From contig JADMJT010000026.1 in NCBI GenBank assembly GCA_018781585.1, forward strand, positions 1-34,614: DNA of 34,614 nucleotides. The letters run 5' to 3'. This DNA comes from Burkholderiales bacterium. Lineage in GTDB: Bacteria; Pseudomonadota; Gammaproteobacteria; Burkholderiales; Thiobacteraceae. This document shows positions 33,839 to 34,614 of this stretch, in pieces (the first letter of the stretch is position 1; each line of letters starts with the position of its first letter). Made by a program: the position numbers and the translations under genes. Under the pieces are notes generated by a model. The model was not told where the DNA came from and ran no database searches. It saw only the letters and a list, made by a program, of their open reading frames with translations.

Positions 33839-34330
33839 ATGATGACAAACCTCAAAGATTTTTTCGGTAGCTTCCTGCTCATCGAGTTGTTGAAGGGCAT
33901 GCGGCTCACCGGACGCCACCTCTTCGCGCGAAAAATCACCGTGCAGTATCCGGATGAAAAAACGCCGATGAGCCCGCGCTTCCGCGGCTTGCACGCACTG
34001 CGCCGCTATCCGAATGGCGAAGAGCGCTGCATCGCGTGCAAACTGTGCGAAGCGGTATGCCCGGCGCTGGCCATCACCATCGAATCCGAGCAACGCGACG
34101 ACGGCACGCGCCGCACCACGCGCTACGACATCGATTTGACCAAATGCATCTTCTGCGGTTTTTGCGAAGAATCGTGCCCAGTGGATTCCATTGTGGAAAC
34201 GCGCATCTTCGAATACCACGGCGAAAAGCGCGGCGATTTGTATTACACCAAGCCGATGCTGTTGGCGATCGGGGATAAGTACGAAGACATGATTGCTCAA
34301 GATCGGGCAGATGATGCGAAATATAGGTAG
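33839..34330 (+). CDS. nuoI: NADH-quinone oxidoreductase subunit I (2x[4Fe-4S])
   Basis: This 163-residue ferredoxin-like subunit holds clusters N6a and N6b. The motifs [19 protein letters not shown] and [19 protein letters not shown] are intact. The N-terminal amphipathic part ([25 protein letters not shown]) anchors it to the membrane arm. The start is at ATGATG (33839 or 33842). The gap to nuoJ is 159 bp, wide for this operon, and holds a palindromic repeat. Confidence 0.98.
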
Positions 34331-34333
34331 TTG

Positions 34334-34440
34334 CCCTCTCCCCCAACCCCTCTCCCACAAGTGGGCGAGGGGAGTGAGTATGGCGTATTTAAGCAGGACG
34401 AACCCCTCTCCCACTTGTGGGAGAGGGGCAGGGGAGAGGG
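34334..34440. repeat. Nested palindromic element (CCCTCTCCC type) between nuoI and nuoJ
   Basis: Outer arms CCCTCTCCCC (34334-34343) and GGGGAGAGGG (34431-34440) pair perfectly over 10 bp. Inside are two hairpins. The first (34347-34358 with 34361-34372) has one mismatch and an AA loop. The second (34403-34414 with 34417-34428) is a perfect 12-bp stem with a TT loop. The two inner hairpins share the sequence CCCCTCTCCCAC and are nearly identical. I recall similar elements as dispersed repeats in many Proteobacteria. No coding potential is seen in the gap. Confidence 0.92.
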
Positions 34441-34489
34441 TTCCTTTAATATGGTCATGCCCGATGTGGCAAAAAGGTTTTTAAAGCAC

Positions 34490-34614
34490 ATGAATTTTGA
34501 GCCATTCGTTTTCTACCTCTTCTCAGCGATTCTGCTGTTCGCCGGCATGCGCGTGATTACCGCGCGCAATCCGGTGCATGCGGCGTTGTTCTTGGTGCTG
34601 GCGTTTTTTACCGC
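34490..34614 (+). CDS. nuoJ: NADH-quinone oxidoreductase subunit J (5' part only)
   Basis: An ATG at 34490 opens a frame to the window edge encoding about 41 residues. It begins MNFEPFVFYLFSAILLFAGM, then RVITARNPVHAALFLVLAFFT, which is the first helix and the conserved RNPVHAALFLVL segment of NuoJ, a membrane subunit of complex I. AAAAAGG about 12 bases upstream is a weak, distant ribosome-binding site, so translation initiation after the inserted palindrome may be reduced. Confidence 0.95.
   Translation, partial: MNFEPFVFYLFSAILLFAGMRVITARNPVHAALFLVLAFFT

What the first reader, a model, noticed from the sequence alone, without database searches (positions are those of the whole stretch)
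34334..34440. Nested palindrome inserted inside the nuo operon between nuoI and nuoJ
A 10-bp outer stem encloses two near-identical 12-bp hairpins, a very stable RNA fold, in the middle of an otherwise compact operon (other gaps are 14 bp or less). It separates the peripheral-arm and nuoH/nuoI genes from nuoJ onward, so it could change subunit stoichiometry or be an RNase processing site.
Basis: partly seen in the sequence, partly recalled or inferred. Interest (0 to 1): 0.5.

Follow-up and report, generated by a model that had tools for sequence, protein, structure and literature searches.

The report
Triplex-motif repeat pair inside nuo operon
The hairpin between two respiratory-complex genes is a pair of copies of a known, widespread bacterial DNA repeat that landed in the operon; relatives carry quite different repeats, or none, in the very same gap, so the spot seems to accept such repeats rather than hold a conserved switch.

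Summary
The palindrome is real (34334-34440) and far beyond chance (fold z -10). It is two inverted copies of the G/C-rich intrastrand triplex motif (TM, earlier PIT) of Holder et al. 2015: pyrimidine arm, loop, purine arm, linker, and a third purine strand mirroring the purine arm 10 of 10 in both copies. The motif core has about 30 places in this genome, 0 for the reversed control, and occurs patchily in 155 of 398 genomes of the phylum. Other copies sit in other operon gaps, e.g. between ribonucleotide reductase genes. One same-genus genome lacks a palindrome in the nuoI-nuoJ gap; four others carry different multi-copy palindromes there. This is the most often expanded nuo gap: 60 bp or more in 7 of 8 family genomes and 29 of 97 other loci, against 9 of 67 and 62 of 520 for other gaps. 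Best reading: a known kind of repeat in a permissive gap; RNA effects possible, unshown. The new part is repeated filling of one gap by unrelated repeats.

The parts
33839..34330 (+). nuoI (163 aa), gene upstream of the element, TAG stop at 34328-34330
34334..34372 (-). triplex-motif unit 1, read on the minus strand: CCCCTCGCCC, loop ACTTGT, GGGAGAGGGG, linker TT(G), third strand GGGGAGAGGG (mirror of the purine arm 10/10; one arm mismatch)
34373..34402 (.). 30-bp spacer between the two units
34403..34440 (+). triplex-motif unit 2: CCCCTCTCCC, loop ACTTGT, GGGAGAGGGG, linker CA, third strand GGGGAGAGGG (mirror 10/10, perfect arms)
34441..34489 (+). rest of the nuoI-nuoJ gap; its second half (GATGTGGCAAAAAGGTTTTTAAAGCAC) resembles the gap of the same-genus genome that lacks the element
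   Evidence: compared by eye
34490..34614 (+). nuoJ, cut by the end of the contig; start MNFEPFVFYL as in relatives

Best explanation
Two copies of the widespread G/C-rich intrastrand triplex motif (TM/PIT repeat), in inverted orientation, lie in the nuoI-nuoJ gap. They arrived as an interspersed repeat after this lineage split from same-genus relatives and persist because this gap, unlike its tightly coupled neighbours, tolerates extra sequence. In the mRNA they should form a very stable hairpin without a U-run, which may passively alter decay but is not a dedicated switch. Shown: identity, copy number, lack of conservation, other occupants of the same gap. Inferred: insertion rather than loss in the relative, tolerance as the reason, any RNA effect. 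Unknown: how the motif spreads.
For: Motif anatomy and mirror third strand 10/10 twice; agreement with the E. coli K-12 motif table. About 30 core places in the own genome, control 0; 3 to 37 forward matches in the 10 family genomes, control 0 in all; 79 of 200 genomes of the order, 155 of 398 of the phylum; 0, 0, 71 and 246 forward matches in same-genus genomes G014, G063, G107, G146. Gap without palindrome in G004. Other palindromes in the same gap in G001, G003, G005, G006, with 38, 4, 9 and 37 matches in their own genomes, both strands and the query place counted. Of 14 own sites with an ORF on both sides, 10 have both on one strand, among them ribonucleotide reductase large / small chain.
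Against: nuoI-nuoJ is occupied more often than other gaps, perhaps more than tolerance alone gives. The ends of the insertion are not clean: no target-site duplication was identified and the upstream part of the G004 gap does not align by eye. No mobilising enzyme is linked to the motif.
Confidence: 0.82

Rival explanations
1. The hairpin is a functional RNA element: it blocks 3'-to-5' decay or is cut by RNase III, so that nuoA-I and nuoJ-N are made in different amounts (works like REP hairpins in operons, recalled).
For: Very stable fold; lies between nuoA-I and nuoJ onward.
Against: Absent in a same-genus genome; same motif scattered in unrelated operons; published lack of promoter or terminator activity for the motif (PMC4666352 discussion).
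Confidence: 0.2
2. The nuoI-nuoJ gap is under convergent selection for a hairpin, and different lineages meet the need with whatever repeat they carry.
For: 7 of 8 family genomes and 29 of 97 other beta loci have gaps of 60 bp or more there, against 9 of 67 and 62 of 520 elsewhere; an independent TM pair in the same gap in L113; 15 of 49 long gaps fold with z <= -2 against 18 of 94 elsewhere.
Against: The fold comparison is not significant (p = 0.067); 34 of 49 long nuoI-nuoJ gaps have no unusual fold, including G008 and G009 of the same family; the excess over nuoF-nuoG and nuoL-nuoM alone is not significant (p = 0.105, 0.069); loci are related, so p-values are rough.
Confidence: 0.12
3. It is a REP/BIME moved by a REP-associated tyrosine transposase (RAYT).
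For: Interspersed, palindromic, close pairs mostly inverted (24 of 25); three Y1_Tnp genes in the genome.
Against: No motif copy among the palindromes of the three Y1_Tnp loci; no GTAG/GTRG/CGTC tag; the one Y1_Tnp gene with flanking palindromes has a different repeat.
Confidence: 0.08
4. It is an intrinsic terminator or attenuator.
For: Strong G+C-rich stem.
Against: No U-run after the stem; the scan found no terminator at the element (its two hits are inside nuoJ).
Confidence: 0.03

Closest known systems
G/C-rich intrastrand triplex motif TM (TM-ECO; earlier PIT elements), Holder et al. 2015, PMC4666352
   Same: Same order of arm, loop, arm, linker, third strand; same core GGGAGAGGG; intergenic; some copies in inverted pairs; a one-mismatch form with CTCG in the pyrimidine arm.
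   Different: Linkers TT(G) and CA instead of TTA and CCG; third strand GGGGAGAGGG instead of GGGGTGAGGG; stem one base longer. The E. coli finding that pairs join one type A and one type B is met loosely here but not in the wider sample (12 mixed, 6 CC, 4 TT).
REP / BIME with RAYT (GTAG- and CGTC-tagged palindromes)
   Same: Small interspersed palindromes, inverted clusters, between genes.
   Different: No tag tetranucleotide, no linked RAYT found; has a mirror-symmetric third strand.
REP hairpins in operon gaps that stabilise upstream mRNA (malE-malF type; recalled, not looked up)
   Same: Stable hairpin between co-directional operon genes.
   Different: No RNA evidence here; not conserved.

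Membership tests
Intrastrand triplex motif TM/PIT | Three blocks: arm, complementary arm, third strand mirroring the purine arm; stem 6-15 nt, loops 1-6 nt, at most one mismatch | tested here: met
   Stem 10, loops 6 and 2 (3 if the extra G of unit 1 is counted), mirror 10/10 in both units, one mismatch in unit 1; criteria from PMC4666352 section 15
Intrastrand triplex motif TM/PIT | Conserved sequence CCCTC[TG]CCC...GGGAGAGGG...GGG[GT]GAGGG | tested here: met
   alignment with 4 E. coli copies from Table 1 of the paper; 13 invariant columns; third strand has A where E. coli mostly has T
Intrastrand triplex motif TM/PIT | Multi-copy and intergenic | tested here: met
   (27 forward, 24 reverse, control 0); 18 of 24 sites examined have no covering ORF; the other 6 have one, the motif lying towards its 5' end (one of them contains Ns)
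Intrastrand triplex motif TM/PIT | Inverted pairs join type A with type B (reported for E. coli, 5 of 5; not a defining feature) | tested here: not met
   12 mixed of 22 classifiable inverted pairs, about what the linker frequencies give; E. coli statement
Intrastrand triplex motif TM/PIT | Forms a triplex as a single strand | not testable with these tools
   needs CD/NMR; reported for the E. coli motif in vitro only
REP/BIME with RAYT | GTAG/GTRG or CGTC tag at one end | tested here: not met
   within 10 nt, GTRG 1 of 97 (5') and 13 of 97 (3'), CGTC 0 and 1 of 97
REP/BIME with RAYT | Cognate RAYT gene flanked by the repeat | tested here: not met
   3 Y1_Tnp genes; none flanked by TM; L011 is flanked by another palindrome that contains GTAG. 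The assembly has 134 contigs, so a missing gene is possible
Intrinsic terminator | Stem followed by a T run | tested here: not met
Rfam families | Gathering score of any family | tested here: not met
   19 matches, all below their gathering scores (mostly microRNA hairpin models)

The most novel reading that the evidence does not exclude
The nuoI-nuoJ gap of beta-proteobacteria is a recurrent docking site at which unrelated mobile palindromes (triplex motifs, CGCAAAG-, CGCAGAG-, ACAGGATT- and GTGAGG-type repeats) are independently fixed because a hairpin that splits the complex I transcript is useful; the operon recruits a regulatory structure from whatever repeat its genome carries.
Probability: 0.12. 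Interest if true: 0.65.

Novelty: new member of a known kind. Interest (0 to 1): 0.33.

Why it matters
It assigns an apparently special operon structure to a known repeat class and so removes a false lead on complex I regulation. It also gives a clear natural series: the same operon gap in close relatives, once without a palindrome and otherwise filled by different multi-copy palindromes. That series could be used to measure whether such repeats change expression of an operon, which remains open for this motif.

Tried and rejected
Rfam: only weak, mostly microRNA-hairpin matches below gathering scores, rejected as chance matches of a long hairpin. Literature search by general words and by GTAG/RAYT did not name the repeat; searching the letters of the repeat did. 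The two palindrome surveys PMC3733652 and PMC2267715 contain none of the repeat's letters that I searched (finds only). A+B pairing as the two ends of one mobile unit: tested and not upheld. RAYT mobilisation: tested and not upheld. Searches on the nuo operon gap and on a CGCAAAG-type repeat listed no title on the question; only the listings were seen. A first unit parser misplaced linkers and was replaced. An energy evaluation with 2-nt loops gave a meaningless value and was replaced in the same call by the constrained fold. The first gap listing read nine loci on the wrong strand; one search repeats them on the right one.

One search found no shared 200-mer among the 98 loci. In one search, 3 of 25 pairs were not classed (one same-strand pair across Ns, two without a C or T linker). 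Only part of the motif sites of the six genomes was fetched for unit parsing.

Full report
What is there. The window ends inside nuoJ at a contig end (G000:C10:1-34614). Between the nuoI stop (34328-34330) and the nuoJ start (34490) lie 159 bp, where the other nuo gaps of the window are -10 to 14 bp. Within them, 34334-34440 is a nested palindrome as described: outer stem 10/10, hairpins with 11 of 12 and 12 of 12 complementary positions. The fold is far better than shuffles (z -9.98, 0 of 200). The minimum-energy RNA is one long hairpin between the two halves (-81.9 kcal/mol) and the nested two-hairpin form is 16.5 less stable (-65.4), though local hairpins may form first during transcription (inference).

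What it is. Each half reads pyrimidine arm, loop, purine arm, linker, third purine strand; the third strand mirrors the purine arm in 10 of 10 positions in both halves. This is the G/C-rich intrastrand triplex motif of Holder et al. 2015 (PMC4666352; I read the abstract, passages, sections 15 and 18, and part 1 of section 20). Their E. coli table lists the same core, the same one-mismatch form, and five inverted pairs. Unit 1, on the minus strand, is like their type A with mismatch; unit 2, on the plus strand, has linker CA, nearest their type B. The alignment with four E. coli copies is.

It is a repeat family. The core pattern matches 27 times forward and 24 times reverse in the own genome, with 0 for the pattern read backwards (30 distinct places by my count of the list). 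All 10 family genomes searched have it, 3 to 37 forward matches; so do 79 of 200 genomes of the order and 155 of 398 of the phylum. It is patchy even within genera: 0, 0, 71 and 246 forward matches in G014, G063, G107 and G146. Controls are near zero but not always (for example G461: 57 forward against 7). Of 97 parsed units in six genomes, 50 form 25 close pairs, 24 of them inverted, 16 with third strands inward and 8 outward as here; the remaining pair spans Ns. The E. coli pairing of one type A with one type B is not general: 12 mixed, 6 C-C, 4 T-T of 22 classed pairs.

Where else it sits here. Of 24 own sites examined, 18 have no covering ORF; the other 6 (this one among them) have a covering ORF with the motif towards its 5' end, which I read as start over-calls because the motif is open in most frames (inference). 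Of 14 sites with an ORF on both sides, 10 have both on the same strand. I gave Pfam five of these gene pairs, and it names all: nitrate reductase gamma / PpiC, NrdR / RibD, sulfotransferase / transketolase, ribonucleotide reductase large / small chain, heptosyltransferase / KDO transferase. The nuo placement is one of several between neighbouring co-directional genes.

The same gap in relatives. Eight family genomes have nuoI-nuoJ data; two others (G002, G007) gave no nuoI match. G004 has 45 bp with no palindrome and a similar stretch just before nuoJ. G001, G003, G005 and G006 have 84-108 bp with other palindromes: CGCAAAG type (38 matches in G001), ACAGGATT type (4 in G003, 11 in G004), GTGAGG type (9 in G005), CGCAGAG type (37 in G006); matches count both strands and include the query's own place. 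The two C-rich-G-rich types CGCAAAG and CGCAGAG may be one superfamily (by eye). G009 has 102 bp that looks CGCAAAG-like by eye but was not matched there by the G001 query, and G008 has 69 bp of no kind known to me; neither folds better than shuffles (z 0.08 and -0.53). G005 carries a TM pair in nuoJ-nuoK. In a separate lineage, L113 (Burkholderiales MAG) has a TM pair in nuoI-nuoJ, and L075 and L092 have palindromes of a CACAGAG look there (by eye).

Is the gap special? Gaps of 60 bp or more: nuoI-nuoJ 7 of 8 against 9 of 67 for other gaps in the family (Fisher p 4e-5), and 29 of 97 against 62 of 520 in 98 other beta-proteobacterial loci (p 3e-5). Those loci are 79 of the 80 kept and 19 order-level loci; one had no usable nuoI-nuoJ pair. 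Against single gaps the excess is clear for nuoG-nuoH, nuoH-nuoI, nuoJ-nuoK and nuoK-nuoL (p 6e-8 to 0.04) and not significant for nuoF-nuoG (0.105) and nuoL-nuoM (0.069). Relatedness is not corrected for. Long nuoI-nuoJ gaps are not significantly better folded than long gaps elsewhere (15 of 49 against 18 of 94 at z <= -2; rank test p 0.067). This fits a tolerant gap better than a gap selected for structure, but does not exclude the latter.

Mechanism. No intrinsic terminator lies at the element. For the E. coli motif the paper reports a stable triplex in vitro as a single strand, no support for stable triplex in vivo, no promoter or terminator activity in earlier work, no bias in operon placement, and greater variability of flanking DNA between strains. 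I therefore take it as a mobile or repeatedly generated repeat with at most incidental RNA effects. How it spreads is unknown: three Y1_Tnp genes exist, none has a TM copy beside it, and TM lacks the REP tags, whereas a palindrome containing GTAG flanks one of these genes in the same genome, which serves as an internal contrast.

Novelty. The element is a new member of a known kind. What I did not find described, in the searches, is the repeated filling of one operon gap by unrelated palindromic repeats; these searches were few and cover open-licence papers only.

Noticed in passing
L011:1081-2451 (G000:C99): A Y1_Tnp (RAYT-like) gene flanked by two 61-nt palindromes (84% alike, containing GTAG) is open in one frame with a uracil-DNA glycosylase domain downstream: a REP/RAYT unit apparently inserted in frame near the start of a UDG gene.
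   Followed up: partly
window 34328-34492: nuoI, the whole repeat and nuoJ are in one frame, interrupted only by the nuoI TAG; the repeat itself is open (PSPPTPLPQVGEG...). Probably chance plus the lack of stops in the motif.
   Followed up: partly
L153 (G005 nuo operon), gaps nuoB-C, nuoI-J, nuoJ-K, nuoL-M: Four gaps of one nuo operon hold long, repeat-like insertions of at least two kinds.
   Followed up: partly
L103 and L129, gaps nuoI-J, nuoJ-K and nuoL-M: GTGGTAAGTGG / CCACTTACCAC-like inverted repeats occur in more than one gap of the same nuo operon (Gallionella and Nitrosomonadales MAGs, by eye).
   Followed up: no
L156 (G001), nuoK-nuoL gap: A 243-bp insertion with ACCTAGAAACCGT...ACGGTTTCTAGGT-like ends and a strong fold (z -5.2), possibly another mobile element.
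   Followed up: no
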